Source: Chlorella sorokiniana
Taxonomy: Eukaryota; Chlorophyta; Trebouxiophyceae; Chlorellales; Chlorellaceae
NCBI GenBank assembly: GCA_025917655.1
Contig: CP084609.1
Coordinates: 2,418,001-2,482,000, forward strand
DNA length: 64,000 nt
Direction: 5' to 3'
Of this stretch, positions 528 through 54,646 are shown piece by piece (the stretch's first letter is position 1; each line of letters opens with the position of its first letter). The notes beneath the pieces were generated by a model. That model searched no databases and was not told the origin of the DNA. It saw only the letters and a list, made by a program, of their open reading frames with translations. A program made the position numbers and the translations under genes.

Positions 528-3500
528 TCAGAGGTTCCAGCCGACAAAGTCGGCGGCAGCCGCGGGGCCAAACAGCGCCTCGGGCGGCGAGCGGTAGAAG
601 GCGGTGTGCACCGCCTGAGGCGGCGGCCCGCCTCGGCGCCAAACATGCTGGCGTAGCTGGCGGCGAGCAGCTCGGAGATGTCGGCCTCCGCCGTCTTGCG
701 CTTGTCCCGCAGGTCTTTGTCGAGCAGGGAGCAGTACGCCGCCACCTGTACCGCACGCAAGGCGGGGGAGAGAAGCGTGGGGCACACGGCGGTCGAGGCG
801 GCGCGTCCTGGACGCGTTGTCAGTCCGGGACCACCCTCCACGGCTCCGCAGCAGCCAGATCCCGTGGTCCCGCACCCCAAGGCTTGTCGTAATCAGGAAA
901 TACGCCAGCTTGCCTGCCCCCGCATCCCAATTTGGGGGATGCAGAGATGCGCAGCTGGTCAAGCAACCCCTCCACCCCTGCGCCCACCACCACCACGCCC
1001 GCCTCCACCGCCGCACAAACACAACGCATGCAGCCGCACCTGCGGGTTGCTGTGCCGCCGCAGCGCCTCCAGCTCCCACAGGCTGCTCTCAAGGGCTCGG
1101 CTGCTGGCCGGGTCGGGGCTCCCAAGTCGAACACATCCTCGCCGCGCCAGGCAGGGCCGTCTTGCTCCTGCTGCCGCTGCTGCTCCTCCTGCAGCGGCGC
1201 CGCCGGCTCGGGCGCGGTGGCTGCTCCGCCCGGCAGCGGCTGCCCCGCTGCACCGCCGCCGCCGACGACCTCGGGCGGCAGCGGCAGCAGCGGCGCCGGC
1301 GCGGCGGCGGCGCCGCCGCCGCCGCTGCGACGCCCGCCAGGCCGCGCGCGCGGGCGGCCGGTGCAGCAGCTGCATGGCGGCGGGGTGGCGGCGCAGCACG
1401 TTGTGCATGAAGGCCAGCGCCAGCTGGGCGCCGCCGGGGGCGCGCCCAGCGCCAGCCGCGCCAGCCGCTTGACAAACGCGGCCGCCGTGTAGGCGGGCAC
1501 CATGCCCGAGGCCAGGAACACGTCGGCCAGGGAGAAGAAGCGAGCACGGTGCTTGGCCTGCAGAGGGGGGGGACGTGAGTGGCGCAGGCTGGTCCGTTGG
1601 CAGTCGATTCACCAGGGGCTCAGGCCAGCTGCACCAATGCTCCCTCTTTCCACCACCACCAATACTGCGACGCACCTCCTCATCCCCACCCTCTCGCCAC
1701 TTGCACCTTCAACCCCCCTTCCCCTCCCCAGCCCTCAACTGCCCCCCTCCCCACCCACCCCACCCACCAACCACCACCACCACCACCCACGTGCACCCTC
1801 CAAGCCCCCACAACAGCGGCAGGGCGGGGGGGGCGCAAGCGGGATGCTGCGCACGTGGAAGGCGTCGGGCGTGATGAGCTGGTAGAGGCGGGCGTAGAAG
1901 CGCGGGTACTCAAGGCCGTGGCGGGTGACCAGCAGGAAGATGCCGTGCAGGGCCAGCATGCCGGGCAGCCCGCCGCGGTCCAGCGTCTCGGTCAGGTAGT
2001 CTGCGCGTTTGTGAGCGGAGGGGGTGGGGGGGGGGGGGGTCTCAGGGGAGGTCGGTGGTCAGTGTGGTGGGTGGCGTGGGTGGGACTCGGCCCCCTTCCA
2101 AGAAAATAAAAAGAAAACCACACAAACTCAACCCCGGATGCCCCTCTCCCCCACCAGCTTCTCTCCCCACCCAGCCCCGCCGCACCTGCCAGCATCAGCG
2201 GTGTAGTGAGGGCGGGGAGGATTGTGTCGGGTACCGCCGCCAGCACCTTCTTGTGGATGTCCTCCGGCAGGTCCAGCCGCAGTACCGCCAGCCAGGCATC
2301 GCTGCGGTACACGGAAAGAAGGTAGCGGTACGGTGTGGGCAGGAGGGCCAGCACAGCTTTCAGCGGGCGGGAGGGCAGGCAGGGGCAAAGGGAGCGGCAG
2401 TTGCGCTGGCGCAATTGCAGGGAGCAGCCTTTGCACGAGGCCAGAGGGCGGCGTTCAGGCGCCACGCTCAGCCTGGTGAAGCAGCTGAGTGCCAAGCACA
2501 GCCCCACCTGAGCATTCGCTGGTGTGCCTTGGGGCTGGCCCACAGAGCGCGCTGGCGCTCGGCGGCGGCCCCCTCCGCCGCCGCCGCCGCCTCAGCGCGC
2601 GCGGCGCTGGCGCTGCGCGCGCGTGCGCCCTCCCCCGCGTTGGCCGGGGCAACCAGTCCCAGCTCCGCGGCACCGCACCAGGAGGAAAGCTGGCTGGGGT
2701 CGGGCGAATCCGGCCCGGGGGCATCTCCGCCAGCAAGTCGTGAAGGGTGCGGGCCAGGTCATGCGCGCTGACTTTGCCGCCTTCCACCCCCTCTGCTGCA
2801 GCCTCCTCCTCCTCCTCCTCCCTTTCGCCGTCTGCAGGGGCCGCCGCCGCCTCGGCATCCCCCTCAGCATCCTCCCCGTCGCTCCCCTCGCCGCTGCCGC
2901 GCTGCGCCGACGCGGGCGCATCTGCCAGCCAGCCGCCGCCGCCCTGCCGCTCGCCGCGCTGCGCCGCCGCCTCCCGCCGCGCGAGCTTGATGATGCTGGC
3001 TAGAGTGAAGTAGCGCACGTCCGCCATGCCTGCGCATCGGCCAGAGAGCAACACGAGGTGGCACCAGCTGCTCTGTGGTGACACCCAGGCGCAGCATTAC
3101 CCCACCACCCTCTGCCCTGTCCCGCTCCCGCGCTTGCTGCCCACCACTTGCTGCCTTGCAAACCAAGCATTCATCAGCCCTCGGGGCTTACCCAGCAGCC
3201 GGGCGATGAGCACTCCAAGCACCTCCGGAGCGACGCCGGCGCCGGTGAGCAGCACGGTCATCAGGCGGTGGAAGAGGCGGTTGTTGAACACGCCCGGCCG
3301 CTCGCCGCGCACGCACTCCATGGCCGCCAGCAGGGCCGCCACCTGCGCGCGGGGCCCGCTGGCGGCGGAGCCCAGCAGGCGCAGCAGGGCGGCCAGGTAC
3401 GCGGTGTACTGGCGGTGCAGCCACGCGGCGTACACGGCGGCGGGGGAGGCGTCGGCGGCGGGCGGGGGCTTGATCGACAGGTCGCCGCGGCCGAAGCAGT

Positions 3501-3784
3501 CGATGAAGAAGAGGCGCAGGCTGTGCAGCACGGGAGTAGCCTGCAAGGTGCGCAGACAAGTGGTGGAAAGGCGGGGTGGCAGCAGCGGCGGCAGGGTGCC
3601 GCCATCTCCCTGCAAGCGCGTGCATGGCGGCGGTGGCAGGGCGCATGTCCTACCTGCGGGTGCCGGGTTTCAGGGCCGCCAGCAGGACGGGCAAATTGTT
3701 TGCCTTGGCCTGCGGCTCCGCCACGAGTTGCTCCGCCAGGGCGGGCAGGTCATCTGGAATCGGTCGTTTCTTTCCTGGTGCCAT
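528..3784 (-). CDS. NOC4: NOC4, nucleolar complex protein 4 (CBF/Mak21 family)
   Basis: NOC4 works with Nop14 in the nucleolus to assemble and export the 40S ribosomal subunit. The ATG at 3784 begins MAPGKKRPIPDDLPALAEQL, and the first exon ends near 3654. Further exons give a helical N-terminal part (about 3200-3540), an acidic Glu/Asp-rich linker (about 2700-3000), then the conserved CBF/Mak21 core: MLALHGIFLLVTRHGLEYP (about 1900-1960), DVFLASGMVPAYTAAAFVKR (about 1460-1540), HNVLRRHPAAMQLLHRP, SSLWELEALRRHSNPQ (about 1080), and LLAASYASMFGAEAG near the C-terminus, with the stop at 528. The core matches the NOC4L order: food-chain helices, an FFxLADxFL segment, the LLRRHP block and a C-terminal YxxMF block. 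The frame breaks at a five-G run at 1436-1440 (six needed to join LALGAPP to the LALAFMHN frame), and again near 610. Both look like base-loss errors. Confidence 0.9.
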
Positions 3785-5438: not shown

Positions 5439-7262
5439 GTCCCACCAACCCAATGTCTCTCCCCCTCCCCCTCAATGAGGAACAGCGATGAGGGGCGCGA
5501 CATCGTGATCGTTGCCCGCACCGATGCGCGGCAGGCGGCGAGCCTGGAGGAGGCGCTGTGGCGGGCCGCCGCGTTTGCCGACGCGGGCGCCGACGTCGTG
5601 TTCATCGATGCGCTGGAGGGGGAGGGGGAGATGGCGGCGCTCGCTGCCGCGCCTGGCGCGTACAAGGTGGGCGTGGCTGGGGGAGTGGGGTTTGGGGAGC
5701 GCGCTTGTGTTTGCAGTTGTGCCAGTGAAGGGACAATCAAAACTCGTACGCCTGAAGCGCGACGTCAAAAGTGAGGTGGCTGACTGGCCGGTGGAGGGGC
5801 AGGGATGAACCTTGTGCGGCATGACTGGGGGAGATGAGGCGCGGCAGTCATGGGGCGTTTGAGCACACGCAGCTGCGAGGCAGGCAGCTGGGGCGAGGTG
5901 CCAGCCGCCTGCGGGCTGGCAGCCTGCAGCTCGTCGAGCCCCGCTCCCCCACACAAACTTTAATGTATGCATACACACCTGGCCCTCTGCCCTCCCCTCC
6001 CTCCCTCCCACACACGCAGATGGCCTCCATGCTGGAGGGCGGCGGCAAGACGCCCATCCTGCCCCCGACCAGCTGGCGGCGATGGGCTTCAAGCTGTGCG
6101 CCTACCCGCTCTCCCTGCTGGGGGTGTCGGTTCGGGCGATGCAGGACGCGCTGCAGGTGGGTGGGCGCTCAGCAACCGCAGCAGGCACAAGGGATGGCAG
6201 GGGGTGGTGCTGTGAAAGCTACCTAAGAGTGGAGTGCGCTTGCCGCCCTCCAGCAACCGAGCCGCTCTGCCTGCCCCCTTCCCTTACCACCGAGCTGGCT
6301 GGCCATTCCAATGCGGCGTCGCCTCTTCCCCTGGCCCCATCCCCACTCAACACGCACACACATGCACCCACTTTGTGCAGGGCCTCAAGTCTGGCGCGGT
6401 GCCGGGCCCCGACGCCCTGCCCAGCTTCCAGCAGCTGCAGGCGGCGGTCGGCTTCCCGCAGTACTACGCTGAGGAGGCGCGGTACGCGGTGCCCAGCAGC
6501 GCGACCCGCGATGCAGCAGCGGGCAGTACAGCCAGCGGTACTTTTGGCAGGCCAGGCGCCGGCGCTGCCAGCAGCAGCGGGGCAGCAGCAGCAGCGGCCG
6601 GGGTGGAGCCGGACCTGGTGCTGGAGCCGGGGGCGGCGGGAAGCTCCCAGAAGCTGCCGCAGCCGCGGGCACCATCGACCTCTATGCCGGCCGCTCGACA
6701 GATGGCGGCGACGGCGGCGGCGGCAGCAGCGGCGCGTACCGCTCGCGTGGCGCCGCCGCCGCGCCGCAGTGGGTGCGCGTGCGGATCACCGACACGTGGG
6801 CGGGCAAGACGACGCTGGACACGCGCTTCCCTGCAGGCAGGCCGCTCGCGGCGCGCAGTCGCTTGCAGCCGGCTGCCCTGCCCCGGCTAGCTGGCGGCAC
6901 AGCAGCACGCGCATCGGCTGCTGAGCAGCAGTCCCTCGCTGCGCTGCCGCTGGCTGCAGCCTGCACCCGCCAGCCTTGCGCCCGGCCCCCTAAGACCCAT
7001 CCCATCTCTCTCCAAGCCCAGCCTCACGCACCCCCTTCTGCATCGCCAGGCACACGCGGTTCCTGAGGTGCCCCCTTTTCCTGCCCCCTTTCCTCCAGGC
7101 TTCCTGGGCTCCGTGGCCAGCCTGGTCCCGGCGGTGGCGGGCGTTGACCTGGAGGGGCTGGTGCGGAGGGCCACCGGCGACGCGGGCTGGGAGCCCAGCC
7201 GGCCGGTGTACGCGTATGATGCAGGCAGCGACAGGATCGAGGTGTTTCTGGAGTATTCTTGA
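3991..7262 (+). CDS. PEP mutase/isocitrate lyase superfamily enzyme with an extra C-terminal domain
   Basis: This is a (beta/alpha)8-barrel C-C or C-P lyase, closest to the plant chloroplast carboxyvinyl-carboxyphosphonate phosphorylmutase-like proteins and 2,3-dimethylmalate or methylisocitrate lyases. Exon 1 (ATG 3991 to about 4191) gives a basic, Ser-rich leader and then ASLRNLLAQPGILL. It joins GPCCHDGLSARLIEQAGFDF at about 4351. Later exons carry GLISYGEMVD, the Mg-binding DGDTGYGNAVNVKRT, ILIEDQQ, the catalytic loop WPKSCGHVRGKRVV (about 5143-5175), DIVIVARTDARQA and LCAYPLSLLGVSVRAMQDAL. The KxCGH loop is of the lyase type, so I expect a lyase rather than a true phosphomutase; the substrate is unknown. 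After the barrel (about 6480) come a low-complexity linker and about 110 residues (about 6670-7262) that I do not recognise. The frame breaks at the five-base runs 6062-6066 (C) and 6629-6633 (G). The leader suggests the plastid. Confidence 0.9.
5395..5436. repeat. C14 run followed by (AC)14 in an intron
   Basis: A run of 14 C is followed directly by 14 AC dinucleotides. It lies in the pyrimidine/CA-rich 3' part of the PEPM/ICL-like gene's intron, a few tens of bases before the next exon. Its length is likely to vary between strains and may be miscounted in the assembly. Confidence 0.9.
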
Positions 7263-7316: not shown

Positions 7317-7575
7317 AATAAATGGAAGGTGCAGCCATGAATGGCTGACAAAAAAACGTGTGGAAGCAGCCGGAAAGAAATCTGGCCGCGGGCAGAGCCT
7401 TGAGAACAACAAAATGCAGATCAATGGACTGGGCAAGGCAACGGAAGTTGGGCACATAGAACGGAAAAAGGAAGACGAGGCGACTGCTGGAAGGGTGCAG
7501 GCGGACAACCTCAAGCTCGAGCCGACTGGCTGCGGAGCTGGGTGCACTGACGGCTGGCGCTGCGCCATCGCCGAG

Positions 7576-9545
7576 CTAGCCAAGATGCAGGCCAGGAATC
7601 GCCTGCAGCAGCGCCCGCTGCACGGCCTCCGTGGGCCGACGGCTGAGCACCAGGTCGCGCAGCAGGCGCAGCTGGCTCAGCGTGCTCCTCACATCGCCAT
7701 CGCTCAATTGGATACGGCAGCCAGCAAGGTCGAGCGAGCGCAGGTTGGTGGCAGAGCGCAGCGCCGCTGGAAATTGCACGATGTAGAAGTCTTCAATACG
7801 TAGGCGAGTGAGGCCTGCAGGGGCAGAAACACAAGGGACCCTCTGCTGGCAGGAAACAGGGGGCAGGGTGCCCATGCGCGGCATGCAGCTGCTCACCGCT
7901 CAGGTAAGGCCCCGGGGGCAGCCCCTCCAGCCCGACATTCCTCAGCGTCAGCTCCTGCAGCCCCGTCAGCTGGCACAGCGCAGGCGGCAGCTGGCCGCCA
8001 TCCGCACGGCAACCATTGATGTTCAGGCTGCGCAGCAGGGGCGTCTGCGGCAGCAGCGTTGCCAGCAGCGCACCCAGCCCGTCCGGCGGCGTGCAACGGA
8101 GCAAGCTCAGCGCGGTCAGGTGCTGTAGGTGGGCGGCGCAACCATTGCACTGCTCGCTGCCCAGCTCGCTGTGCCACAGCTCGAAAACGTGCAGGCGCTG
8201 AAGCGTGCCCTGAGGCACCGCTGCCTGCAGCAGAGCGGCGAGCGGCTTGGCGGCGCCGCCTGCGATGCGGGACGACAGATTGAGCTCCAGCTTCACGCCG
8301 CCACTTTCTGTGTATGAAACGTTGCAGGCTCGCACGCGCCCTCCTCCAAGCTGCAGCACAGGACGCAGGAGGGAACCGCTGGGGCAACATGGGCAGCTTG
8401 ATCCCATCCCGTAAAGCACAACCTTCAAAGGCGCAACACCCGCAGCTGCAGGCACACAAGACGCAAGAAAGCGCCTGGCGCCGCCTTGCCCCACCTTCAC
8501 CCCTCCGAAACTGCCCAGGAGCCAGGTGCGCAGGGCAGGGAGCGAGTGCATTGGCGGCACCTCCAAGGGCGCAGTCTGGTCTGCCAGCACGTCCAAGCGC
8601 AGGCGCTGCAGCCGCGGCAGGCTGGCAAACGGTGGCAGCGCGGTGGTGGGGACCATGGTGAGGAGGTGCAGCTCGGTGAGGCCAGTCAGGCCCACTGCTG
8701 CCTGTAGCATCGCGAGCGGGATTTCATGGTGCTTACTGCAGGCACGCAGCCGCAGCGAGCGCAGCGCGGTCAGCGAGGCCAGCGCTGGGCCGTCCTCCGC
8801 CGTCATGCAATCCAGGCGCAGCTCCAAGCACGCCAGGCGCGGGAAGCGGCGCAGCGCGGGGCCGGTGATGGCGGGCAGCGGCACCGCGCCCCGCTGGCTG
8901 GGGTCGGCCAAAACGCTGCAGTTGAGGCGCAGGCTGGTGAGCCGGTATGGGCACAGCATGCCCAGCATAGCAGGCAGCTCCGCCAGCACAATTCCCGCAT
9001 TGTTGTGCGTCAGCCGGGTGCCGGCTGGGTTGATGTCATGGATGGGGCCCCCATCTCGTCCGCCCGTGCACAAACTGGCACGAAGCGCTGAACGACTGCA
9101 CATGCGGCGCGGCAACTTCCAAGGTGGCCCGCGCGGCGGAAAGCCAGTTGGCTTCGTTGCAAGCTGAATGGATGGCTCCCTGATTGATGTCGTAGGGCCC
9201 CTGCCCGCTTGCCACCACGCTTGCCACCACGGGCAGTCGTTGCAAAACTTCAAGGGACGGCTTCAGCTGGAAGTTGCGCCACAGGCAGCCCTCGCTCTTA
9301 TAAACAGCGCGCCAGCGCTTGCATACGCAAGCAAGTGTGGCCCTGCAGCAGGGGGGCGCTGGCGGCGGAGATGTCTCGAGGTGGGCTGTAGAAAGAGGCG
9401 CATCAAGGCACTCATTCGCAGCTTTTCCGCACCCAAACTGACGCCCGCCGGCAGCAAGAAAGATCAGCGCGAGCACGGAGCTGGGAAGCGCATCGATCGT
9501 GGTAACATGGTCGCTTTCCTCGGTCTGTTGGCTGGTTTTTAACAT
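7576..9545 (-). CDS. F-box/leucine-rich-repeat protein, copy A
   Basis: Predicted substrate receptor of an SCF-type ubiquitin ligase: an N-terminal F-box binds Skp1 and leucine-rich repeats bind the target. Exon 1 starts at ATG 9545 and gives the first half of the F-box (TTIDALPSSVLALIFLAAGG), ending at a donor near 9453. The second half, RATLACVCKRWRAVYKSEGC, begins exon 2 at about 9345. Exon 2 holds RNI-like LRRs (LTSLRLNCS, LACLELRLDC, LRSLRLRACS, LQRLRLDVLA) down to about 7890. The last exon has LRSLDLAGCRIQL and ends PTEAVQRALLQAIPGL, with the stop at 7576. Copy C at 12742-14714 is nearly the same gene. The frame changes near 9060 at a place where copy C also changes, which suggests an unrecognised small intron rather than an error. 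Targets are unknown. A receptor role by LRR alone, without SCF, remains possible. Confidence 0.8.
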
Positions 9546-10093
9546 CGTTTCAAAGGCAGCACAGCGTATACAGTGTGGCTACGGTTGTTCATCGTCGATA
9601 AGCCATGTCCGCCTCTCATAGCTGCGCTGCGAGCGCTGGGCAAAGGCGTGTGATGCGCCCAGTCTGTACATCCAGGGGGCCAGGGCGGCAGATGAGTGGC
9701 TGTCCCTGTCCCACGGTTGATACACAAAAGATCCAGGCGGCGTGTGTCACACAGAGATGCACTTTGGGGGATGGAACATACTGCAGCAAATGGCTAGCCG
9801 CCCAGTTGCTGCTAGCAACTGCAGCCCGCCCAGTTGCTGCAGCCTCCCCCAGCGCTGGGGGAGGGTGCTTGCCCGCACGCGGCCCACCGCTCAGCGCCTG
9901 CCCGTCCCCAGGCAGCGTCAAGCGTCTGCCTGTTCCCAGGGCGGCGACCGCCATTGTAAGCCCTCAACGCAGCACGCGCCTGGGCCTGAGCTGAAGCAAA
10001 CGTGTTGTAATGGGCGTGGATGAACAAATCACCATGTCCTGTGAATGCGCACGCTTAGCGTTGGTGATGCACACCGTGACAGTCGAGGCGCAG

Positions 10094-11915: not shown

Positions 11916-12741
11916 GTGATCAACGCGTGCTTCCTCCGCATGGCCTGCAGGTACCGCAGCGACCACACGTTGGCGAGAAGAAGGGCGGTGGGGCAAAGCT
12001 CGTGTGAGTGACACCACACTGCCCGTCTTATACCGCCCGCTGCGGCTGCCGCTCCACGCTATGCAGCCAATTGAAGCCTGATGTACCAAACACCCAGCTG
12101 ATTTAATAGGCCGCGCCTCACAGAATGAAACCTTTTGGACAAGAACTTGCTGGTCCAAAGACCAAGGGCCATCTTGCTGCCAGGTTGGGCGGCAGGCATC
12201 GCACTCCTTGCGCATTGATGGTGGTTGGCCTGCTGGCTGGCGTTTGGTACACTTGGCAGGCAGTGAAACGTACTCAGGAGATCACCTTTGTGCATCCTCA
12301 ACAAAGCCATGCCCGCCTCCGATGAGCGCGAGCGCTGGGCAAAGGCGTGCAGTGCGCCCAGGGTGGCAGGGCAGCAGATGGGTGGCTGTCCCCTTCCACA
12401 GTTAGGCGAACATACACATATGCCAACTGTGACTGCCGCCGCCCAGGCGCCGCTAGGCGAGGCCGCTTGCCAGCGCGCAGCCCCCCGCTCAGCGACTGTC
12501 CGCTCCCGGGCAGCGACCGCCACTCTCAAACAGCCTTTACTGCAGCACCCGCGCACGCCTCAGCTGATACAACGTATTTAGGCACAGCTGAGCAGATCAA
12601 GATGATGGTGCGATCGCAGTGCATGATGTAGCAACCGAAGCGCTGCTGCTGCACTGGCCAGCTCAAGCCGGCCGCTCCAGCAGCGGCGTTGGTGCTGCCA
12701 GGATGTAGTGGCGCTGTGGCCGCGTGATCGTCGAGGCGCAG

Positions 12742-23486: not shown

Positions 23487-25093
23487 ATGCAACTAACGAA
23501 CAGTTGCTTCCCTAAAGTTGCTAGTCGGCCGGACCGCAGCAGGCGTCGCAGGGCAGATGAAGCGCGCGTGTTTGTGCATTTCGTTTTGCAGCATTCAACC
23601 CACAAGGTGTTTGGGCTACAATGGCATCACCGCAGGCTGCAAGCGTTCACCACGCCGCCAGGGGTTCAGTTGCCTCTCGGCACTGCAGCCCTGCCTCAGC
23701 ATTCTCGGCAAGACGACATGCATGCAGGCTTGGGTGAGCGCCCGATGGACAGTATCCGCTGGCTACCTGGTGGGCCACCGCCGTCGCCGCCGCCACAGCT
23801 GCGTTCTCCCCGTTTGCTTTGCAGGCCTCCTGTCGCTGCACCTGCCGCGCGTCGAGCATGGCTCAGAGCCCTGTCAGAAGCTGCTGACGCAGCCTCCGTC
23901 GAAGCGGCCAGCCTTGCCGGCCCCGCCGCTGCAGCAGGCGCAGCAGGCATCGCGGCACCCACGGAGGCGGCGCCAGCGTTTGCGGTGCGGCCCTGGCGAA
24001 CCCGCGAGGATCTGGAGCGGGCGGCCTGGCTGCGGGCAGAGGCATACTACGAGGCAAGCCTTCCTTTCATTATGTATATGCTGCCTTTCTTCCATTATGT
24101 ATGTGCTGCCATGTTGTCAGCATCTCCTTCGCGCCGCTGCCGGGCCCACACGCCAGCCCGCTCACACCCGCCCTCCCCGCGGCCTGCGCTCCTGCGCGCA
24201 GAACCGCAGCGTGGGCCGCTTCAAGGCCTCCTTCGTCAAGCAGTTTGCGGGGCAGGAGTTTTACGCGCTGCTGCGGCGCACGCGGGCGCAGAGCCGCTCT
24301 GCCTCACCCTCGTTGCGTCGGCGCACACTGCCGACGGCGTCGACGGCTCGGCGCCCTTGAAAGCAGAGGGGCCCGTCATCGGCCCTGGCAGCTGCCTTGG
24401 CACGCTGGATGTGCGGCTGCTGAGCGAGGCAGCCGCGACGCAGATGGAGTTGATGGGCGGGAGGTGGCCCGATGGCGTGCCACGGCCTGCATCAGCCGCA
24501 GCCGCCGCAGCCTATGTCTCCAATGTGGTGGTGGCGCCACAGCAGCGCGGCCGCGGTCTTGGCCGCGCCCTTGTCCTGGCAGCGGCATCCCTGGCACAAG
24601 AACGGTGGGGGCGGCACAGCTGTACTGCCATGTGGAGCTGGACAACCAGGTATGCTTAGTTGGCAGGCGCCGAGCTGGCGGGCCCGGCCGCTGCTCCCTG
24701 CCCTTTCACCACGGCCATCCACGCGCTGCTGACTGCGGCAGGCACAGGGGCTCACAGCCCTTGCAGACTGTAGCATGCTCGACAGCACAACCTCACGCCC
24801 ACTGTTGCTGGTGCTAGCAATGCAGGCGGCGCTGGCGCTGTACCGAGCATGCTGCTTCCGCCAGCTGGGAGGGCAGCTGCCGCCCGAGGAGGAGGGTCAG
24901 GGTGAGGGACGCTGGCAGGGGTGTGCTGAAAGTGGTGGTGGTTGCAGTGGACAGCCATTGCCGCTGTGCTGTGCTGCCTGAGCTGCGCTGTGCCGTGGCC
25001 ATCCCACCCTGCCCTTGTTGCCCCTCCCTCCCCCTGTCACACCCAGCAGGCCGCCGCCTGCTGCTGTGCCTGGAGGCAGAGGAGCGGAGCTAG
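23487..25093 (+). CDS. GNAT-family N-acetyltransferase, probably plastid
   Basis: Transfers acetyl from acetyl-CoA to an amine, either a protein N-terminus or Lys, or a small metabolite. The frame is open from ATG 23487 through a long Ala/Pro/Arg-rich leader into VRPWRTREDLERAAWLRAEA. The next exon (from about 24202) gives GRFKASFVKQFAGQEFYALL. The acetyl-CoA loop QQRGRGLGRALV is at about 24540-24575, preceded by AYVSNVVVAP. Then come LYCHVELDN and, after an intron, ALYRACCFRQLGGQLPPEEE (about 24837), ending LLLCLEAEERS at 25093. The order (beta4, then the Q/RxxGxG/A loop, then the late helix ALYxxxGFR) is standard; here the usual Gly in the last motif is Cys. The frame breaks at a five-G run at 24607-24611. 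The first intron appears to use a GC donor. An internal start, and so a different leader, is possible. Confidence 0.82.
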
Positions 25094-25845: not shown

Positions 25846-27377
25846 ATGCCGAGTTTTGCACTCGCGGCTCCTTGCAATGCACGGCCCTGCGGCAGCCTGT
25901 TCTCATCGCAACAACAAGGCTGGCGGCCAGCGCCGCCTCGGACCGCCGCAGGCGCCGCCCGCCGTCCGCCCAGCTCAACCCGGGCAGCCGCCGCCGACCT
26001 CGCCAACGCAGCGCTGCCTCTGCAGCCGCAGCAGCCTGTTGTCAAAGTGTGCGGCGTGACCAACGCAGACGACGCAGCGGCAGCGGCAGCGGCTGGCGCC
26101 AACCTGATTGGCATGATCCTTTGGCCAAAGGCCAAGCGCAGCATCCCTGCCGCTGTTGCGCGGGAGGTCGCGGCGGCGGCGCGGGCTCACGGCGCCGAGC
26201 CAGTGGGCGTGTTTGTCGACGAGGACGCCGCCACCATTGCCAGGTCAGCATCGCGTTGCTCTGTCGGCATCCCGCTGCCCCAGGCTTGCGCCAGCAGCCA
26301 GCGCGTGGCAGGGTTGGGGCCTGCTGCCGTCGAGGCCTGTTTCTCCCTACTGCTGACAGTGTCTTGCTGGCATCTTCAGTGCACTGGCACCATTCACGCC
26401 CTGGAAGGTCTCAAAGCAGGGCCCCCCTTGTCTCTTAAACCAGGATGTGCGCCGAGAGCGGCGTGCGCATTGCTCAGCTGCACGGCGACGGCGCTCGCCA
26501 AGCCTTTGCCGCGCTGCCCCCGAGCTGGCGGCCGTCTGGGTGCTGCATGCCGATCCCGCGGGGCAGGTGCAGACGGCGCTGCCCCCTGCTCCCAGCAGCG
26601 TTGGCGGCAGGTGGGCGGGGGCTGGGCGGCGGCGGCCGCCGCTGCTCTTGAGGGGCTCGCTGCGCGGGACCGCTGCGAGGAGCTGCTTCCCATCCCTGGA
26701 CCGCTTGCAGAGCAGTCTGCAGCCTGTGCGCCGCTGCATGCTGCCCTTAGCGCCGGCCCATGCCCCAACGTTGCATGCCTTCCCCTCTGTGCCTGGCCTC
26801 TACACCACGCAGGCAGCCCGCCTGGCTGATAGTGGACAGCCTGCAGGGCGGCAGCGGCCAGGCCTTCGACTGGGCGGCGCTGCGGCGATCTGCCGCCAAC
26901 AGCCTCGCTGGCCACTCCACCCACGGCTGGCTGCTGGCGGGGGGGCCTCACTCCAGACAGCGTGGCAGGTGGGGCAGCGGCGGCGCACCTCCCTCCATTC
27001 TCCCCCGCTCCCTGCCTGCTGCTGCTTCTGTTGCTGAGGCTGATTATGGCATGCATCCCCCTTCCGGTCCTGCTCACCCCAAACAGAGCTCTTTAGCAGC
27101 TGGCAGCCGCACCTGTCAGCCAGCTGCCCTACGCGTACAGCGGCGCCATGCCCCGCCAGCAGCTTGTGCAACACTGCGGCGAAACACTCCTGCCCGCCCC
27201 CTGCCTCCGCTGTTTGCCCTTGCAGAAGCCGTCGCCACTGCGGCGCCCACTGGCGTGGACGTGAGCAGCGGGGTGTGCGGCCCCGACGGGATGAAGAAAG
27301 ATGCGGGCAAGGTGCAGCGCTACTGCGCAGCGGCAGCGGCAGCGCTGCAGCGGCGGCGGCAGGAGGGGGCGGCGTAG
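25846..27377 (+). CDS. phosphoribosylanthranilate isomerase, chloroplast type
   Basis: Third step of tryptophan synthesis after anthranilate: the Amadori rearrangement of N-(5-phosphoribosyl)anthranilate to CdRP, in the plastid. ATG 25846 starts a 65-residue Ala/Arg/Ser-rich transit-like leader. It is followed by VVKVCGVTNADDAAAAAAAG with the catalytic Cys in KVCG, ANLIGMILWPKAKR and EPVGVFVDEDAATIA; the first intron follows at about 26242. Exon 2 (about 26444) gives SGVRIAQLHGDGARQ. Exon 3 (about 26816) gives WLIVDSLQGGSGQAFDW with the catalytic Asp, then the phosphate-binding region WLLAGG. The last exon gives TGVDVSSGVCGPDGMKKDAG and the stop at 27377. The frame breaks at a five-C run at 26517-26521 (six needed to reach ELAAVWVLHADP) and at a seven-G run at 26939-26945 (six needed to read LLAGGLTPDSV). 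Confidence 0.93.
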
Positions 27378-34480: not shown

Positions 34481-37400
34481 TCAGCTGTCCACCTGCATGG
34501 CGTCGCCGCTAGCGGGCGGAGCGGTGGCGGCATCTGCGGCGGCAGGTGCCCCGCCCTCCGCCTTCACCTCCGCCGCTGGAGCTGCAACAGCCTCAGTGGG
34601 GGCAGGCGCCACAGGTGCTGCCGGCGCAGGTGCAGCCGCAGTCTGCTGTGCGGCGGGGGCCGCGGCGGCCGCTACCGGCGGGGCTGGCTCCGCGGCGGCG
34701 GCTGGCGCGGGGCGGCTGCCGCGGCAACGGGCGGCGCTGTCGCCGATGGCGCGGCAGCAGCCGGGGCGGGGACGGTGTTTGTGTTGAGGAAAGCTTCGTC
34801 GCTGCCCGGGCGGCTGCCGGCGTTGCGGCGGGCGCGGCTGCTGCTGCGGCAGGCGGGGCAGCGGTTGCGGGAGCCTGCAGGGGGCAGGCGGGGACCCGGC
34901 GGGGCCGAGTCAAACGCTTGCGCGCACAAGTCAGTACGCCGCCATTCAACGTACGGAAGCCAGGGATGCTAAAAGAGCAGGCTCTCAGGGCGCAGCCCGG
35001 GCCCCGCAAGCAGGGCCCGGGCCTTGCCGCTTGGTCGACACTCAGCAGGCACGCAGAGCGCGCAGTCAGTCCGCCCGTCGACACACGTGTCCTCACAGAG
35101 CCTCCCCACCCTCCCCACCCCCACGACAGCCATCAGCGGCATGTAAGGGCGGCAACAGGCAGCGCTGCAGGCGGCAGGCAGCAGGCGGCAGCGGGCAGGC
35201 AGGCAGCGGGCGCGGGAGATGAGCGCACGCACCGGCGCGGCGGGTTCCGAGCCGTGGCCTTGCTCGTTGCGGGCGGGCTTCACGTCGTCTCGCTCGTCAT
35301 CGCCGACCTGCAGACAGGAGATAGGAGGGGGCGGGGTGTGCGGGATGGGATGGAGCAGCGGGCTGGGAGTTGAGCTCACAGCCCATGGCGAACCATGAAC
35401 GCACGAGCGCAGGCAGGCGGCGGCAGTCGAATCGATGGAGCAGGCAGCTGGCCGCCCAGCGGCGCGTGCAGCACAGCAAGGACGACCACAGGGAGAGGCG
35501 CAGCGGGGGCGGCATGAGAGGGGCAGCAGCGCCGCACGTCGTCGTCGCGCGCCACGCGTCGGTCGTCGTGAGCGGCGCCGCCCCCGCGCGTCCATGTCCT
35601 CCTCAGGCAGCTCCTCCTGGGGGCGGGAGTCGGCAAAGCGTCGATGCAGTCCATGCAGAACCAAGAGGCCGCAAACAGGGGCAGAAGACGGCATGCCAGG
35701 CTTAGGCCGCCAGGCAGATCGAAGCCAGAGCAGGCTCACAGCGCTCACAGCAGACCTGCGGCACGAGCACGCCCATGCATCCATGAAACACCCTCACCCA
35801 CGCCACACCTCGCCGCGAACAACGAAACCACAAGCAACCCAGCGAGCAGCCCCCTGGCCCGCGCCCCCACCTGCTCCACTTTGGGCGGCACTGCGGCGGT
35901 GAGCTGCACCGAGGGCGCGGGGGCATGGCCGCCAGGTTCTCCAGCACCTGGGTGCGGATGCGCTCCAGCGACTCCCGCGTGTTGGCGTTCTTCATGTTGG
36001 ACACTGCAGCGGGGGCGGTTGTGTGTGTGTGTGGTGGGGGAGGGGGCGGCGTGTGGTTTGGGGTGGGGTGGGGGTGGGGTGTGAGAGGCAAGTGGGGTGG
36101 GGTGGGAGGCTGGCAAGGCAGGCGGTGGCGCGTGCACGTCGACCACCAACACACAGCCCGTCGTGGCGGCTGGCGCGCACCCGCGATGCGCAGCTTGTGG
36201 GTGTCCATGAAGTAGTCGTAATCGCGGAAGCCGCCCTCTGGGATGCTGCACGGCACAGGCAGGAGGGGGTGCGCGGTACAGAGCGGTACGGAGCACCTCG
36301 GAGCGAGTGAGGAGCTGAGGGGCAGCATGGCCAGCCAGCGCCGGCACACCAACCGACCACACCGGGACAGGGAGGCAGCAGCCCCACGCTGCCGCTCAGC
36401 CCGCGAGCGGCGGGCAGGCTCAAGGCGGGGCCCCTTGCGCAGCCAGCCAGCAGGAATGAGCGGCAGGCGAGAGGGCGCAGCACCACACGCGGGGGAGGCG
36501 CTGCGGGGCTCACTCGTCCGGAAGGTCCAGCCCCAGCATGCGCCCGGTCTCATAGCACCAGCAGCGCGACACGTTGCGCATCGTGTAGCCGCCGCCGCCC
36601 AGCAGCAGCATGGGCACGTTGAAGCGCGCCAGGAACTCGATGCAAGCAGAGTGGCCCTGCACAGGGTATGGACGTGGAGACCGGTGGGGCGGCATGCACC
36701 GTCACTGAGCTGTATGGCGGCCGGCGAGCTAGGTTGGGACAATGGACAAACGCGGCGGGCGCAGCTGCCTGCACTCCGTACATGCCCCCGGACTGCCAAG
36801 CCTCACGCCACAGTCGTGCCCCTCCCCCCCAACAACCACTGTTCCGCCAGCGCCACAACCTCGCGCACATGGAGGCACCCAGTGCAGCATTGGCCACCAC
36901 CACCACACCCCGGGAAGCCCACCCACCTGGATGGACAGGTTGAAGCAGCCCAGCTTGTCGCCCGACAGCGAGTCGGCGCCGCAGCACATGACAATGGCGC
37001 CCGGCTGGTACAGCTCCATCACCTGAGCGGTACAAGGGGAGCGGACAAGGCAGCGGTACAGCGGTGCATAGGGTGTGCAACCCAGCACAAGCAGTAGTGC
37101 AGGGCACCGAACAGATCCAGCCTCCAACACAAACTGAGAGGGGTTGACAAGGCGCGTCGCTGGAGCGGCGGCAGGAGCGGCGGTGTACAGCACGGGAAAG
37201 CGATACGGTACCGCCCCCGTACCTTCTGCATCACCGGCTCGTACACGTACTTGTAGCTCTCGTCGTCCATGCCCTCCTGCAGCGGCACGTTCACGCTGTA
37301 CAGCTTGCCGCCCTCGTGCCCGTGTCGCCTGCGAGAGGCAGGGAGCAGGGTTTGTCGGAGAGTGCATGCAGACGCGTTTGCAGGCAAAGGGTGGGGAGGA

Positions 37401-45666: not shown

Positions 45667-48600
45667 ATGCGGGGCACCGCTTTGTCATGCAGGGCTGCGC
45701 AGCCCGTGAGGGCCGGCCGGCGCTCGGTGCAGGTGCGGATGTGCAACCCTATAATCGCGATCCGCGATGCAAGCACGCATTGCCTGTTTGGCTGCCGGCG
45801 GCCATGGGTTGGGTTGCGGCCGTGGCGGCGTGCCCTGCCGCCTGCACGCCATTTTGGCCGCTGCACCGGCATCCCAATATACGGGTTGTCATCAATGCAT
45901 AGCCAGCCGACGCCAGGTCCCCACCCTGGGCTGGTGCCTCGGTGTTGCTGCCGCACGCTGCCGAGCACCTGAAACGACAGGCGGGCCTTGCCATTGCTGC
46001 CAGCTTCCATCGGTAGTTCCGAACAGCTGAAGCCGTTGGCTTTGGTCTCGATACTTTTCAGTCAGTCCAGTGGTTGTGGGCTGCTGCACCCCCACTCTGG
46101 CAGGCAGCAACCGCTGCCCAGCCGCCGCACGCCAACTGCCGCCGTGTGCTGGTTGCCCACTTCACCTCGCTGTGCAGGTGCTTGCCAAGAAGACTGCCGA
46201 CGGGCCAAAGGTGGCCATTGTGGGCGTGACTGGCGCGGTGGGCCAGGAATTCTTGCGGGTGAGCCGCTCTTGCCTTCCACCCGTCCCATGCGGGCACCTG
46301 CTCTCGACGGCTTGCTGGCGCCTCGCTGCAGCATCCCCTCTGCCCCCTCTATGCATACCCACAACCTGTCAAGTATGTGAAGTCCTCTCCATTGCGAGGC
46401 ACCCCCGCCTACACCATGCACACTCGCATGCGCCGCCGCCGCAGGTGCTGCACGAGCGCGACTTCCCTACTCCGACCTCAAGCTGCTGGCCTCGGCGCGG
46501 TCGGCGGGACGCACGTACAGCTTTGAGGGCGAGCAGTACACGGTGGAGGAGCTGACGGAGGACAGGTGGGCACCGGGGGTGGGCACTGGGGGTGGCCAGG
46601 CAGATGGTACGGGGGTGGGGGGCAGCTGCACCTTGGCTGTGTGTGATTGGGCGCCGTGGTGGGGATACTTGGGGGCAGGTTTGGCCCCCAGCTGGCTGGG
46701 TCCCAGCCTTGCACCCCGTTCTTCACCCACCCGCACACAACACACACGCCAACCACCACACAACCACCACCAACGTCTGCACACACGTGTTCCACCCTCC
46801 TCCCGCAGCTTCAAGGGGCTGGACATTGCGCTCTTCTCCGCCGGCGGCTCCATCTCCCAAGTTCGCGCCCATCGCCTCGCAGGCGGGCTGCACCGTGGTG
46901 GACAACTCGTCCGCCTTCCGCATGACGGAGGGCGTGCCGCTCGTCATCCCTGAGGTCAACCCGCAGGTGCGCTTGGGGGCCGGTGAGGGGGGCTGGGGAT
47001 CGGCGGGTGGGTGGCAGAAACTTGTTGAGTGGGGTGAGAGGGGGCTGGGGCTGGCGAGCGGGTTTGGTTGTGGGGCTGGGGTGAGCTGAGCGGGAAGAGT
47101 GGAGCCGGGGGTGGCGGGCGTGTGCCCGTGTGGGTGTGGGCGCTGTTGTTGTTGCTTGCCGAGCGTCGGCGCTCGCCCCCCCCCGCCCTCCCCCGTGACT
47201 GCGGTACAGGCCATGGCGGGGATGAAGTACGGCCAGGGCGGCATCATCGCCAACCCCAACTGCTCCACCATCATCGCACTCATGGCCGTCACCCCCTGCA
47301 CCGGCTCGGTGGGCTGCCTCGGCTGGCTGTCCCATCTAGCACGCCAGCCTTGCAGCTCTAGGGAACATCTGGCTGCCGCCGCCGCAACATGTGCCTTGTC
47401 ACCACCCGCTGCCTGTCCACCCTCCTGTGTACCGCCTGTACTGCTTGCAGCCAAGGTGAAGCGCATGGTGGTGTCCACCTACCAGGCGGCCTCCGGGCGG
47501 GCCAAGCAGCCATGGAGGAGCTGGAGCAGCAGACCCGCGAGGCGCTGGAGGGTGGGGCGGCTGCCGCTGCTCTGCCGCTGCCGCCAGCCAGGCCTTCCGG
47601 CAGTCATCGCGCGCTGCACCAACCCTTGCCAGCAGCGTGCTTCATGGGTTCAACTTGGGCGCACCTGCTGAAAACTTTCCTGATCTAGAGGGGTTGCACC
47701 AATGTTCATCCGCACCCGCATCCTTCCTCACGCGCCCTTGCCCCGCTCACGCGCCACAACCCTCGCTCACGTGTACGCGCAGGCAAGCCGGTCACCATGA
47801 ACATCTTCCCCTTCCAGTACGCCTTCAACCTCTTCTCACACAACTCCCCCATGACGGGCAACGGCTACAACGAGGAGGAGCTGAAGATGGTGGGCGGGGG
47901 GGGCTCAGGGCGGTGGTGGTGGGGGGAGGGATTGGTAGTTAGGGCTGGTGTTGGGGGCTATGGAGTTTGGGCGGGCAGGGGACATCTTAGTGTACGGCCG
48001 TGTGTGTTCGTTGAGCAAGGTGAGCAGGCGGTTGGGAGGGTGCTGGGGCAGGCGTGATGGCAGGGGCAGTCCTCCACCTCAGCAGCGCCGTCGTCCCTTC
48101 AACCCCAGCCCCACCCCGCCATACCCGAGCACACGACTTCCCAACACCTCTCATAAAGCAACCCCTCAAGATCCAACCATGCGCGGTGTCCCCCGCAGGT
48201 GAAGGAGACGCGCAAGATCTGGGGCGAGAGCGACGTGGCCATCACCGCCACCTGCATCCGCGTGCCCGTCATGCGCGCCCACGCCGAGTCCATCAACCTG
48301 GAGTTCGAGCGGGACGTGTCGGGTGGGTGCCGCGGTATTACGGCTCAACTGTGTTTACACCATTCCATCAGTTTGAGTGGCCGCGGCTGCGCTGCGGCGC
48401 CGCCAGGGGCATCCCCAGCTTGGCGTGCTGGCTGTGTGGGTTGGCTGAGGCCTTTGCCCAGCCGCCAAGGCTCTAGGAAGGCTTGGGGGGGGAACCTGGT
48501 GGGGGAGCGAGCAGCCGTGCAGGGATCCCCAGTGCCGGGGCCGGGCCTGTGCAGTGCAGTCCCTGTAGAGCTGGAGGCCCCACCGAGCTCAGCAGGGTGC

Positions 48601-49202
48601 CGTGCGCCGAGGGAGGCTGCCGCCGCCGGCAGGGCTGCCTGCGCTGCCGCCACGAAACCGCCGCGCGCCTCGCTTCACCTCGCATCGACCCACCCGCGCC
48701 GCGCGTCTCCCTGGCTGCGCTGCAGAGGAGGAGGCGCTGGCGGCGCTGGAGGCCTTCCCGGGTGTGTCCATCATCAACGACCGCGCCGCCAACCGCTTCC
48801 CCACCCCCTCGACGCCTCGCACAAGGTGGGGGGCTGCAGTCTGGCTGAGCTTGTGTGCCGCACTCTGCTGCGGTGGGCTGCGGGTTGGTGGGGATCCAGT
48901 CAACACAAACCCCTGCGGGCCCCGGCCATGCACCCGCTGCCCTCTGGTCAACTTCTTCAGCGCCCGTGTTGGTTCCGCAATGCGCAAGCTCATCCGGAAT
49001 CCTTTGCCGCCGCTCATTGCTGCCCGCTCGCCGCTGCCTGCCCCGCTCCTGGACCTGCTCGCAGGACGACGTGTATGTGGGCCGCGTGCGCCGCGACATC
49101 TCCCGCGCCGATGCCAAGGGCCTCGACCTCTTCGTGTGCGGCGACCAGGTGAAGAAGGGCGCCGCGCTCAACGCAGTCCAGGTCGCAGAGCTGCTGCTGT
49201 GA
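45667..49202 (+). CDS. asd: aspartate-semialdehyde dehydrogenase, chloroplast
   Basis: Reduces 4-aspartyl phosphate to aspartate semialdehyde with NADPH, leading to Lys, Thr, Met and Ile. Exon 1 (45667-45732) encodes a 22-residue piece of the transit peptide, [22 protein letters not shown]. It joins in phase at 46178 to [20 protein letters not shown] (the Rossmann GxxGxxG region). Later exons give [37 protein letters not shown], the active-site Cys in [18 protein letters not shown] (about 47240-47293), [69 protein letters not shown] with the following [11 protein letters not shown] (substrate-binding Arg and His), [15 protein letters not shown] and [13 protein letters not shown], ending [12 protein letters not shown] at 49202. 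The frame breaks at C-run sites 46465-46467, 46856-46858, 47292-47296 and 48804-48808, and at about 47497. Two of the C runs read five where six are needed. Confidence 0.96.
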
Positions 49203-50504: not shown

Positions 50505-53500
50505 ATGATTTTCGATGGCATCCACCGCCTGGTGAGCCTCTGACTATTGCTACACAGTCGCTGTCAACAACGCAAACACTGTATTGGCATGCCCGGCTGG
50601 CCGCGTTTTCATTACCGAGGTGAGGAAGGAGACTTGCTTCGAATCCCTGCTGCGCTGTCGCGCTCGTTTGCTGCAGGCCACGGGGCCCCTGGAGGCGGCG
50701 CTGCTCGCGGTGCTGCTGCTGTGGCTGGCCAGCTGGAGCCTGGACCGGCACACCAAGGCGGCGCAGCTGCTGTCTTCCCTCCACCTGCGCCTGCTCAGCG
50801 CAGCGCTGACGCAGGAGCCAGGCGAGCCCAGCAAGGCGGCGTCGGCGGCTTCTTCGGCAACAGCAAGCGCAGCCGAGCAGCAGCAGGGCCCTGCTGCCCG
50901 GGCGGCTGCCTGGCCCGCCACGGCATCTGCGGCGGGCGAGCCCGGCAGCCCACCAAAGGACATTTCCAGCTTCCGACTGCCAGAGGGGGCTGGGTGGGAG
51001 CGCTGCCGCGCACCCTGCCCCGCACCGTCGCCGCAGCAAGCCGGGCGGGGGCCAAGCGCACCAGCAGCGTTGGAGCGTGGACGCTGCTGGGGTTTCGGGG
51101 CGTGCACGCGGTGGCACACCGCCGCACGCTTGTGGGTGTACGCCCCAAGCCGCGCACCTCGCTGGATTTTGAGGCAGCCCCCGCCACGCCACGCCGCTCG
51201 CGGCCGCAGTCCACCGCAGCTGCGGCCGCGGCGGCGGCGCACCGCCACCGCGCTCGGCGGCAGCTCAGCGTGGCAGACCACCGTGCAGCGCCGCAGCTTG
51301 CAAGCGCTGCGGGCGACGGCGGCGGCACCAGCCGCAGCGGCGGCCGGCGCAGCCGCTCGCCCCCTGCCGCAGACCAGCGCTGGCAGCCGCGCATGCAGCG
51401 CATAGCTTCGGGGCAGCAGCTGGCAGAGCTGGCGGCGGCAGGCGGCCAGCGGGACAGCGGCGAGCTGATCAGGCCGCCGCCGCTGCCTGCACCACAAGCT
51501 CCAGCCACCGACGCCCCAGCTGCCTTGTCTGCTCCTGATCCACGGCAGCATCAGCAGCAGCCGCAGGCGGCAAGCGCTCCCGTCAGTGTGGCAGCGGCGG
51601 TGGCCGCCAGCGGCGCCGCCGCAGCGCCCCCATCTCACTGACCAGCTGGCTGCCTGCCGGCGCCTCCCTGCTGAGCTGGGCTCCCGCCTCGCTGGCCGCC
51701 CCTCTGTCCACCAGCAGCAGCACTGCAACTGGCGAAGCGGAGCTCTTGCCCGCTGGCAACGATGCCAGCGGCGGCGGGCCCCGGGGGCAGTCGAGCGCTG
51801 CGCTTGTAGCGGCAGCGAGCGGCGTCGACCCGACGGAGCCGCTTCCTGCCGCCGCCGCCGCCCGCTCTCCCGGTTTCGCAGTGGGTTGCCAGCACCTCTG
51901 CCTGGGCCAGCAGCACAGTAGAGGCGCTGCTCTGGCGCTCACCATCCTGCTCGCAGCTGCACAGCGGGAGCGGCGGCGGCAGCACAGGCGGCAGCTCGGG
52001 CGAGGCGACGAGCGGCGCACCCACCGGCCTGCAGGCCCACCGCCGCCTGAGCGTCGACGGCGGCGCAGCGAGGCAGTACTCGCACGGCGACGTGGCAGCG
52101 GCGCCGCACCGGCGGGACGCGCTGCTGGCGGCGGCGCGGGCGGCGCGGGGTGGCCCCCGCCCCGAGCCTCGCCCTGAGCCCCGCTGCCGCCACGTCTGCG
52201 CTCGCTTCGGTGGGCCTGGACGGCGACTGCCCGCAGGTGGGCGTGTTTGTGTTTGCTTTCTTGCGCTGCTCCGCACTATGTCAACTGGTGCTTGTTCCCG
52301 ACCCATCATCCAGCCCTGCCCGCTTGCTTCAATGTTTGTCCGTTGTTGTCTGGTTGCGGCGGCCCCAGCTCGACCTCTAGTGCTGTCGCTGCCTTGCCCC
52401 GCCGCTCACATCTCCCCTTGCTGCGCACAGCGAAACTTCCAGCATTTTTCTTTGGTACTGCAGGAAATCCGGGACCACGTCACCGACGAGCACTTGCTGC
52501 AGTTTGCGGCCGCTGCGGCCGACGACGCCGACGCGCTGGCGGCCGCCACCGCGCTGGCTCTGCCGCTGCCCTGGGCCGACGACGGCTGCCTGATGGGCGC
52601 CGCCGACGAGCCGGAAGCCTGCGGTACCGATTTCGACACCGCCGACTGGGAGCTGGTGATGGACCGGGAGGAAGGCGGGCTGCGGTACCGCGTCTGGCGC
52701 CAGCTGCTGCGCAAGGGGCTGTACATGTACCGCGCCGCCGCCCGCTTTGCGGACATCTCTGCAGCCGACCTGAGACCCTTCCACCTGGATGATGACGCGC
52801 GGTGAGGAGGGGTGTGTTGTTCTGATGGGGTGGGGGTGTGGGTGCGTGTGGGGGTGGAGGTGGGGGTGGGGTGGAAAGTGGGGATGAACAGTGGTGCTGA
52901 TCTGGACGGGATCTGAGGCCCACCTGCCTATGATGACCAACCAAGGAATTCCCCTGCAGCAACCTGTGGGATGAAAACGTGCTGGACATCCGGCGCCTGC
53001 GCACCGCCAGCCAGCAGCGCGGCCGCCTGCACCGCCACGCCGAGAGCTGCCTGCACGCCTACCGCTCGCGCTTCCCGCGACCCATGGTGAGCGCCGCCGC
53101 TGCGCTGCCGCTGCGCTGCCGCCGCCCTACCCCTGCTCAATCACCCCTATTGGATGCCTGGGCTTCCTGTGCATCCCCTTCTCGCCCCCTGGCTGCGGTC
53201 ATGAGCTGCAGCCTTCGCCGGCTGGCTGCCCGCTTGCCCTCCTCTGGGCGTGCGCTGCAAGCGTTTCCCACACTCGCTGTGCAACATAAGTCTCACCTGC
53301 ACCCCGCCGCCCCTCCCCCTGGGCAGGCTGCGCGAGAGTACCAGTATGCGCGGCGTGTGTGGCACCGCCCAGCCGACGGCGGTGCCTACGTCCTTTGCCG
53401 CGGCTTGCCGCTGCCGGAGGCGGGTGTGTGACGCGCCGGGCGGGTCTCGGGGGCTTTTGAGGCCTGTGCCCGCCCCGCCGCTACCGAGTCAAACCCCGCA

Positions 53501-54646
53501 GTCCCACAGCCCGCCTCTGGCGCTCTTCCACCGTCCCACGTACAACGTGCATGCACACGCGCACATGCTCACCTTTGCGCGCCCTTTTTTCAAACGTTCA
53601 AACGCAGGCGACGGCTACCGGGCCGTTCCCGTCACCGACTTTGCGTCAGGCTGCGTGCTGCGAGAGTGCCCCGAGGGGCGGCGGCGCCGAGATGCTTTCC
53701 CTCTACTTTGAGGACTCGCTGGTGAGATGCTCTGCGCCTCTCGCCGTTGAAGGGTCCCAGCGCGCCATCTGTCTGTCTGCTTCGCATTTGCGCTTGTGGT
53801 GCAGCAGGCCCAGCAGCTGCTTCACTGTGCGCTGCTGCTGCCCGTGCGTGGGGCAGCTGCGCGCGTGCTGCTGTGCGCAGGCCCACGGGCCCCGTACGTT
53901 TTGCGGGAACCCCATACCTTCATCCCCCCCAAAAAAAAACACCGCCAAACGCAGGTGCGCCCGGGCTGGCCAAGATGGCTGTGAAGGGCATGTGGTCCTA
54001 CATGCAGCGGTACCACGCCGCGCTCAGGTGGGAGGGGGAGAGGGCAGATGGGGGGGACCTGGTGCTTGTTCAGCGGTTGTATGGGGCTGGTGGGCTGGGG
54101 TGGGCTGCCTCCTTGGCGACCTCCCGACGCTGCAGATGGGGTGGAAAGGGGGCTGAGGCGGTCTTGAGCTGCAGGGCTGGGAGCTGCGCCAGCTGGGCCG
54201 CCCCCTGGCTTGTGACCAGCCCTCCCACCGTTTGTGGTTCTCCGCCGCCGCAGAGTGTTTGCAGAGGCTCGGCGGGCGGCCGCCACCCCCTGGGCAGCAG
54301 CGCCTCGCCACGGCGCCGAAGCTCTGACGTCGCTGGCGGCACGCCTGTGCCTAAGGCACGCCGCGCGCTGCAGCTGGCCCCTGGCCCCGCTGCCTGCGAC
54401 AGCGACGCGGGCAGCAGCAGCGGCGACGACGCCACGCGCCGCGCTGTGGCGTCGCTGTTTGCCGCGCAGCGCCTCTGTCGCGGCGGCGCGGTGCTGTCCT
54501 CCCGCCTGGCCCCCGCTGGTGGCGGCATGGCTGGCGCGGGTGACGCCCGCGGTCGCCGAGCCGCGTCGCAGTCTCGCTGGGCCGGTCGCCTCGTCATCCT
54601 GGCTGGGATCAAGATGGTGCACTCCCTGCTCTCGGCCAAGCGTTGA
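50505..54646 (+). CDS. membrane-anchored START-domain lipid-binding protein
   Basis: START domains bind one lipid (phospholipid or sterol) in a helix-grip cavity. A 27-base first exon (ATG 50505, MIFDGIHRL, donor GTGAGC at 50532) joins in phase at about 50679 to a transmembrane helix (GPLEAALLAVLLLWLASWSL). A long Ala/Ser/Pro/Gln-rich, probably disordered region follows (to about 52200), with RTSLDFEAAPATPRRSRPQS. The START domain starts near 52465: EIRDHVTDEHLLQFAAA, DTADWELVMDREEGGLRYRV, KGLYMYRAAARFADISAADL, NLWDENVLDIRRLR, LHAYRSRFPRPM, REYQYARRVWHRPADGGAYV, YRAVPVTDFASGCVLRE, EMLSLYFEDS and MAVKGMWSYMQRYHAALR (about 53975-54030). The tail ends LVILAGIKMVHSLLSAKR, a short hydrophobic segment. 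The order matches plant membrane-related START proteins. The frame breaks at five-base runs 50985-50989, 51627-51631 and 54286-54290 (six needed in each) and near 53680. Confidence 0.88.

What the first reader, a model, noticed from the sequence alone, without database searches (positions are those of the whole stretch)
1436..54290. Conserved exons repeatedly lose frame at C/G runs, most often five bases where six are needed
Joining the conserved family frames requires one extra base at five-base C or G runs at 1436-1440 (NOC4), 6062-6066 and 6629-6633 (PEPM/ICL-like), 19102-19106 (F-box E), 24607-24611 (GNAT), 26517-26521 (isomerase), 35919-35923 (deacetylase), 47292-47296 and 48804-48808 (asd), and 50985-50989, 51627-51631 and 54286-54290 (START). 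The PI-PLC-like exon 3 needs two added G and then has an exact codon length. Unrelated housekeeping genes cannot all be broken in the same way, so this is best read as a homopolymer consensus error. Longer runs (C14, G18, C17) remain in introns, so it is not a simple cap at five. Any automated gene call here will be truncated or will invent introns.
Basis: partly seen in the sequence, partly recalled or inferred. Interest (0 to 1): 0.8.

Follow-up and report, generated by a model that had tools for sequence, protein, structure and literature searches.

The report
Under-called C/G runs breaking alga genes
The broken reading frames are best read as a sequencing artefact: this green-alga assembly seems to record many runs of six or seven C or G as five, so automatic gene models here cannot be trusted, but no new biology is needed.

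Summary
All 12 listed C5/G5 runs exist. Loss of frame by one base is firm at 1436, well supported at 6062, partly supported at six sites (6629, 24607, 26517, 35919, 47292, 48804) and not confirmed at four (19102, 50985, 51627, 54286). The window lies on a 38.8 Mb, 15-contig assembly whose plastid rbcL is 465 of 467 aligned residues identical to Chlorella sorokiniana. In 254 kb of nuclear sequence, C/G 5-runs are in excess (895; simulated 685, sd 14) and 6- and 7-runs are short (117 against 230; 33 against 76); 8-runs are as expected. A/T runs in the 19 other loci show no such step. Decoded coding and remaining DNA show it alike. Frame changes rise with C/G run length, to an estimated 30-35% of coding 5-runs; 21 of 49 direct frame switches lie within 18 nt of a C/G run of 5 or more, 6.3 expected. 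Four plastid genes are split between frames, without a C/G 5-run at the three junctions looked at. Not a biological feature.

The parts
1436..1440 (-). five-base run in the NOC4 (CBF) gene; downstream frame one base short (firm)
   Evidence: PF03914 pieces in two frames; codon scores; decoder switch at 1439
1025..1959 (-). CBF/NOC4 profile match split over two frames (1393-1959 and 1025-1438)
6062..6066 (+). five-base run in the PEP-mutase-like gene; downstream frame one base short (well supported)
   Evidence: codon scores 5.5/11.2 at 60 nt; switch at 6059; PF13714 in exon 5484-5654
6629..6633 (+). five-base run; partial support
   Evidence: decoder switch at 6660; weak scores
19102..19106 (+). 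five-base run in an LRR-like gene; one-base loss not confirmed
   Evidence: scores 4.3/-0.6; flanking decoded exons differ by the other shift; LRR_4 at 19501-19605, below cut-off
24607..24611 (+). five-base run in a GNAT-like exon; partial support
   Evidence: upstream piece matches PF00583 E 1.4e-5; downstream reading by eye; codon model does not support the upstream frame
26517..26521 (+). five-base run in an isomerase-like reading (family recalled); partial support
   Evidence: scores 3.0/6.5 at 60 nt, negative at 105 nt; no Pfam match for either piece
35919..35923 (-). five-base run in a class I histone deacetylase-like gene; partial support
   Evidence: scores 13.1/2.8 at 60 nt; upstream piece matches HDAC1/2; downstream piece no match; PF00850 in exons upstream
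47292..47296 (+). five-base run in the aspartate-semialdehyde dehydrogenase gene; partial support
   Evidence: upstream piece matches ASADH E 0.046; downstream reading by eye; decoder shows no switch
48804..48808 (+). five-base run in the same gene; partial support
   Evidence: decoded exon 48725-48803 ends at the run; scores 9.3/-1.7; PF02774 at 48196-48315; no match for the upstream piece
50985..50989 (.). five-base run; frame loss not confirmed
   Evidence: no positive codon score on either strand
51627..51631 (.). five-base run; frame loss not confirmed
   Evidence: no codon score above zero
54286..54290 (.). five-base run; frame loss not confirmed
   Evidence: no positive codon score on either strand
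35581..35585 (-). further C5 run at a direct frame switch, not in the finding
52154..52158 (+). further C5 run beside a direct frame switch at 52147, not in the finding

Best explanation
The assembled consensus under-calls C and G homopolymers: many true runs of six or seven bases are written as five, so coding exons lose one or two bases and the downstream frame shifts. The cell's own DNA is most likely intact. The most likely cause is nanopore-type single-molecule reads without full short-read correction; the platform is inferred from the shape of the error, since no read record was available. Shown here: the run-length anomaly, its presence outside decoded exons, its C/G bias, the link to frame loss, and plastid genes split between frames. 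Inferred: that the true runs are longer, and the platform.
For: Run lengths against an order-3 Markov simulation: 5-runs 895 against 685 (sd 14), 6-runs 117 against 230 (sd 11), 7-runs 33 against 76 (sd 6). A/T runs fall smoothly in the 19 other nuclear loci. The same step occurs in decoded coding sequence (4->5 0.37, 5->6 0.09) and in the rest (0.47, 0.14). Frame loss by C/G run length, one base short, 60-nt flanks: 0.04 (lengths 1 and 2), 0.05 (3), 0.09 (4), 0.16 (5); two short or one extra 0.13 at 5; A/T runs of 4-5 none, on about 14 coding runs. The share of misread 5-runs estimated from the spectrum alone, 32% by 3->4 extrapolation or 23% from the simulated mean (second value by arithmetic), is close to the frame estimate of 30-35%. 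21 of 49 direct frame switches near a C/G run of 5 or more, 6.3 expected. Plastid rbcL, atpB, rps2 and ccsA each match one Pfam family in two frames with adjoining model positions; the two rbcL pieces are 465 of 467 residues identical to the Rubisco in PDB 8q04. Published nanopore error profile: lengths below 5 well estimated, longer ones under-estimated, C and G worse than A and T (PMC8486125, passages). For Chlorella variabilis the long-read-only MinION assemblies scored 0 to 1.3% on the paper's gene-model measure ECR (ABruijn unpolished, Miniasm, Canu) against 88.5% for the MaSuRCA hybrid (PMC6154909, passages).
Against: No reads, RNA-seq or second assembly of the strain could be consulted. 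Runs of 8 are not depleted (28 against 25 expected), which a plain cap would not give. 28 of 49 direct switches have no C/G run of 5 or more nearby, and the rbcL, atpB and rps2 junctions hold none, so homopolymer under-calling is not the only error. For C/G runs of 6 the model kept none in frame, on about 3 coding runs with bootstrap ranges from 0 to 1. Four of 12 listed sites were not confirmed. The codon model was self-trained on the same sequence.
Confidence: 0.94

Rival explanations
1. Programmed frameshifting or other recoding at C5/G5 runs during translation, so that the genes are truly written with five bases.
For: Frame loss is concentrated at C/G runs of five.
Against: The run-length step is as strong outside decoded exons; an estimated 65-70% of coding 5-runs keep frame, and some sit well inside one decoded exon, for example 3442, 3464, 5618, 13829 and 18524 (the decoder penalises switches); both one-base and two-base shifts are estimated; plastid junctions looked at have no such run.
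Confidence: 0.015
2. Real contraction of runs in the cell, by a mutation bias against runs of six and seven, with the broken genes as pseudogenes or damaged alleles.
For: A contraction bias could give the spectrum outside genes.
Against: The genes are conserved housekeeping genes; for PF13714 and PF02774 the only matches found in the genome are in this window, so no intact second copy of those domains was seen by this six-frame search; plastid rbcL of a photosynthetic alga is split too.
Confidence: 0.015
3. Unrecognised short introns or exon ends beside the runs explain the frame changes, and the run-length bump has another cause.
For: The genes are rich in introns and codon decoding cannot place splice sites exactly; this may hold at single sites such as 19102 or 48804.
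Against: Introns do not explain a rise of frame loss with C/G run length, nor the spectrum.
Confidence: 0.03

Closest known systems
Homopolymer length under-estimation in Oxford Nanopore reads (PMC8486125; passages seen)
   Same: threshold near five bases, longer runs written too short, C and G worse than A and T
   Different: that paper describes reads; here it is a consensus, and runs of 8 are not depleted
MinION assemblies of Chlorella variabilis (PMC6154909; abstract and passages seen)
   Same: related alga, GC-rich genome, gene models lost without short reads
   Different: the assembly sizes and contig counts in its table differ from this genome, so it is not shown to be this assembly; the words homopolymer, indel and frameshift do not occur in its text
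Programmed frameshifting of Euplotes nuclear genes and Perkinsus mitochondria (recalled, no call)
   Same: many genes need a shift at a short motif
   Different: here the motif mostly does not shift, the direction varies, and DNA outside decoded exons shows the same anomaly

Membership tests
Nanopore-type homopolymer under-calling | excess of 5-runs with a deficit of longer runs | tested here: met
   the deficit is limited to 6 and 7
Nanopore-type homopolymer under-calling | C/G worse than A/T | tested here: met
   the window alone has a small surplus of A5
Nanopore-type homopolymer under-calling | independent of coding status | tested here: met
   the noncoding class also holds exons that were not decoded
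Nanopore-type homopolymer under-calling | frame loss rises with run length | tested here: met
   at 5 both one-short and two-short/one-extra are estimated
Nanopore-type homopolymer under-calling | read platform, and reads that show the true length | not testable with these tools
   no reads or assembly record available
Programmed frameshifting / recoding | shift at every instance of the motif in coding sequence | tested here: not met
   an estimated 65-70% of coding 5-runs keep frame; 15 of 24 by the stricter count
Programmed frameshifting / recoding | one fixed direction | tested here: not met
   0.16 (0.06-0.28) one short and 0.13 (0.04-0.20) two short or one extra at 5-runs; 4 and 5 of 24
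Programmed frameshifting / recoding | signature confined to coding sequence | tested here: not met

The most novel reading that the evidence does not exclude
This alga really carries contracted C/G runs across its genes and restores frame by genome-wide recoding or by insertion editing of transcripts at C5/G5.
Probability: 0.01. Interest if true: 0.95.

Novelty: not a real feature. Interest (0 to 1): 0.1.

Why it matters
Gene models, pseudogene calls and gene-loss claims drawn from this assembly would often be wrong: 49 direct frame switches were decoded in 58,998 bases of coding sequence. Comparing the run-length spectrum with a low-order Markov model is a quick test that needs no reads and could flag similar assemblies.

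Tried and rejected
Recoding and true contraction were considered and rejected (see rivals). A simple cap at five was rejected because 8-runs are as frequent as simulated; an apparent surplus of 8-runs over 7-runs reflects the deficit of 7-runs. A special flanking motif was not supported: bases next to G5 are close to those next to G4. Short pieces gave few profile matches: 1 of 10 pieces (GNAT) matched its expected family, two had only unrelated weak matches (E 0.12 to 0.16) and seven had none, three of five pieces matched the expected kind of protein, all weakly (E 0.028 to 0.23). Plus- or minus-strand whole-frame Pfam scans of three regions matched single exons only. The strain was not identified: in the listings I recognised no assembly of this size and contig count, and of the Chlorella genome papers listed I opened only PMC6154909. 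A ribosomal RNA check was not possible. A high-GC control record was not held, so simulation was used instead.

Full report
Setting. The window is G000:C8:2418001-2482000 of a 38,804,885-base, 15-contig genome, GC 62-69% per 4 kb. Contig C15 is a plastid: Pfam matches identify atpB, rbcL, rps2, ccsA and the start of accD; chlN, chlL, rpo and other names are recalled from their sequences. Its rbcL is nearest to PDB 8q04, the Rubisco of Chlorella sorokiniana UTEX1230 according to PMC11570498 (passages). The host is therefore a Chlorella-like green alga; the species was not established.

The listed runs. All 12 are five-base C or G runs. I tested frame continuity with Pfam pieces, short PDB searches and a self-trained codon model (GC3 0.93). 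Firm: 1436. Well supported: 6062. Partly supported: 6629, 24607, 26517, 35919, 47292, 48804, with the contrary results listed in the observation check. Not confirmed: 19102, 50985, 51627, 54286. The PI-PLC exon was not tested.

Run lengths. In the window plus 19 other nuclear 10-kb loci (254 kb; the plastid locus L020 left out), C/G runs of length 3 to 9 number 6502, 1990, 895, 117, 33, 28, 8. An order-3 Markov simulation (12 replicates) gives means of 6466, 2088, 685, 230, 76, 25, 7; order 4 gives similar values. The surplus at five (about 210) is of the same order as the loss at six and seven (about 156). A/T runs of 4, 5 and 6 in the 19 loci number 346, 70 and 11, a smooth fall, while the window alone has a small surplus of A5. 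Decoded coding sequence and the remaining DNA show the same step.

Frames. With 60-nt flanks the estimated share of coding runs whose downstream frame is one base short is 0.04 for C/G runs of 1 and 2, 0.05 for 3, 0.09 for 4 and 0.16 (bootstrap 0.06-0.28) for 5; two short or one extra is 0.01, 0.01, 0.01, 0.03 and 0.13 (0.04-0.20). With 90-nt flanks the 5-run values are 0.22 and 0.13, against 0.06-0.09 and 0.01-0.02 for lengths 1 to 3. For A/T runs of 4 and 5 no shift was estimated, on about 10 and 4 coding runs; for C/G runs of 6, about 3 coding runs, none was estimated in frame, with ranges too wide to use. By a stricter count with 60-nt flanks, 9 of 24 C/G 5-runs change frame (4 one short, 5 the other way), against 291 of 4566 single-base control positions. 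A Viterbi decoder found 49 direct same-strand frame switches in 58,998 bases of decoded coding sequence; 21 have a C/G run of 5 or more within 18 nt, 6.3 expected from random coding positions (binomial P 2e-7). The other 28 do not, so further indels exist; window examples are near 46857 and 63004. In the window, 44 C/G runs of 5 or more lie in or within 6 nt of decoded exons; most of these lie inside a single decoded exon, though the decoder penalises switches.

Plastid. In 50 kb of C15 (8.5 kb of it N), four genes, atpB, rbcL, rps2 and ccsA, each match one Pfam family in two frames with adjoining model positions; for accD the first piece matched and the second had no match. rbcL residues 1-309 match 8q04 at 307 of 309 and residues 318-475 at 158 of 158 in another frame. 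The rbcL, atpB and rps2 junctions hold no C/G run of five. A photosynthetic alga is expected to have a working rbcL, so the assembly is most likely wrong there; this supports consensus error in general and shows that it is wider than C/G runs.

Mechanism. Nanopore reads estimate homopolymers below five well and under-estimate longer ones, C and G most (PMC8486125, passages); that fits the threshold, the base bias and the direction. The normal number of 8-runs is not explained; partial short-read correction, or longer runs shortened to 8, are possible (inference). The platform is inferred. PMC6154909 (abstract and passages) reports for Chlorella variabilis that long-read-only MinION assemblies were unsuitable for gene models; it is not shown to be this assembly.

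Verdict. It is an assembly artefact of a known kind; interest is low except as a warning for annotation.

Noticed in passing
L020-L024 (contig C15:1-50000): Plastid contig with an 8.5-kb block of N at 7501-16000 and conserved genes split between frames; A and T runs fall off beyond 7 (A 42 to 12, T 53 to 10 from 7 to 8).
   Followed up: partly
window 7600-16418: Several similar minus-strand leucine-rich-repeat-like exons, apparently a tandem gene family (judged by eye from decoded translations).
   Followed up: no
window 46857 and 63004: Direct frame switches without a C/G run of five nearby, so the consensus probably has other indels.
   Followed up: partly
L009 6848, 7958, 8514: Three copies of one sequence around an identical G7 run, a local repeat.
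   Followed up: no
L010: Seven C/G 8-runs and no 7-runs in 10 kb, unlike the other loci; run-length quality may vary by region.
   Followed up: no
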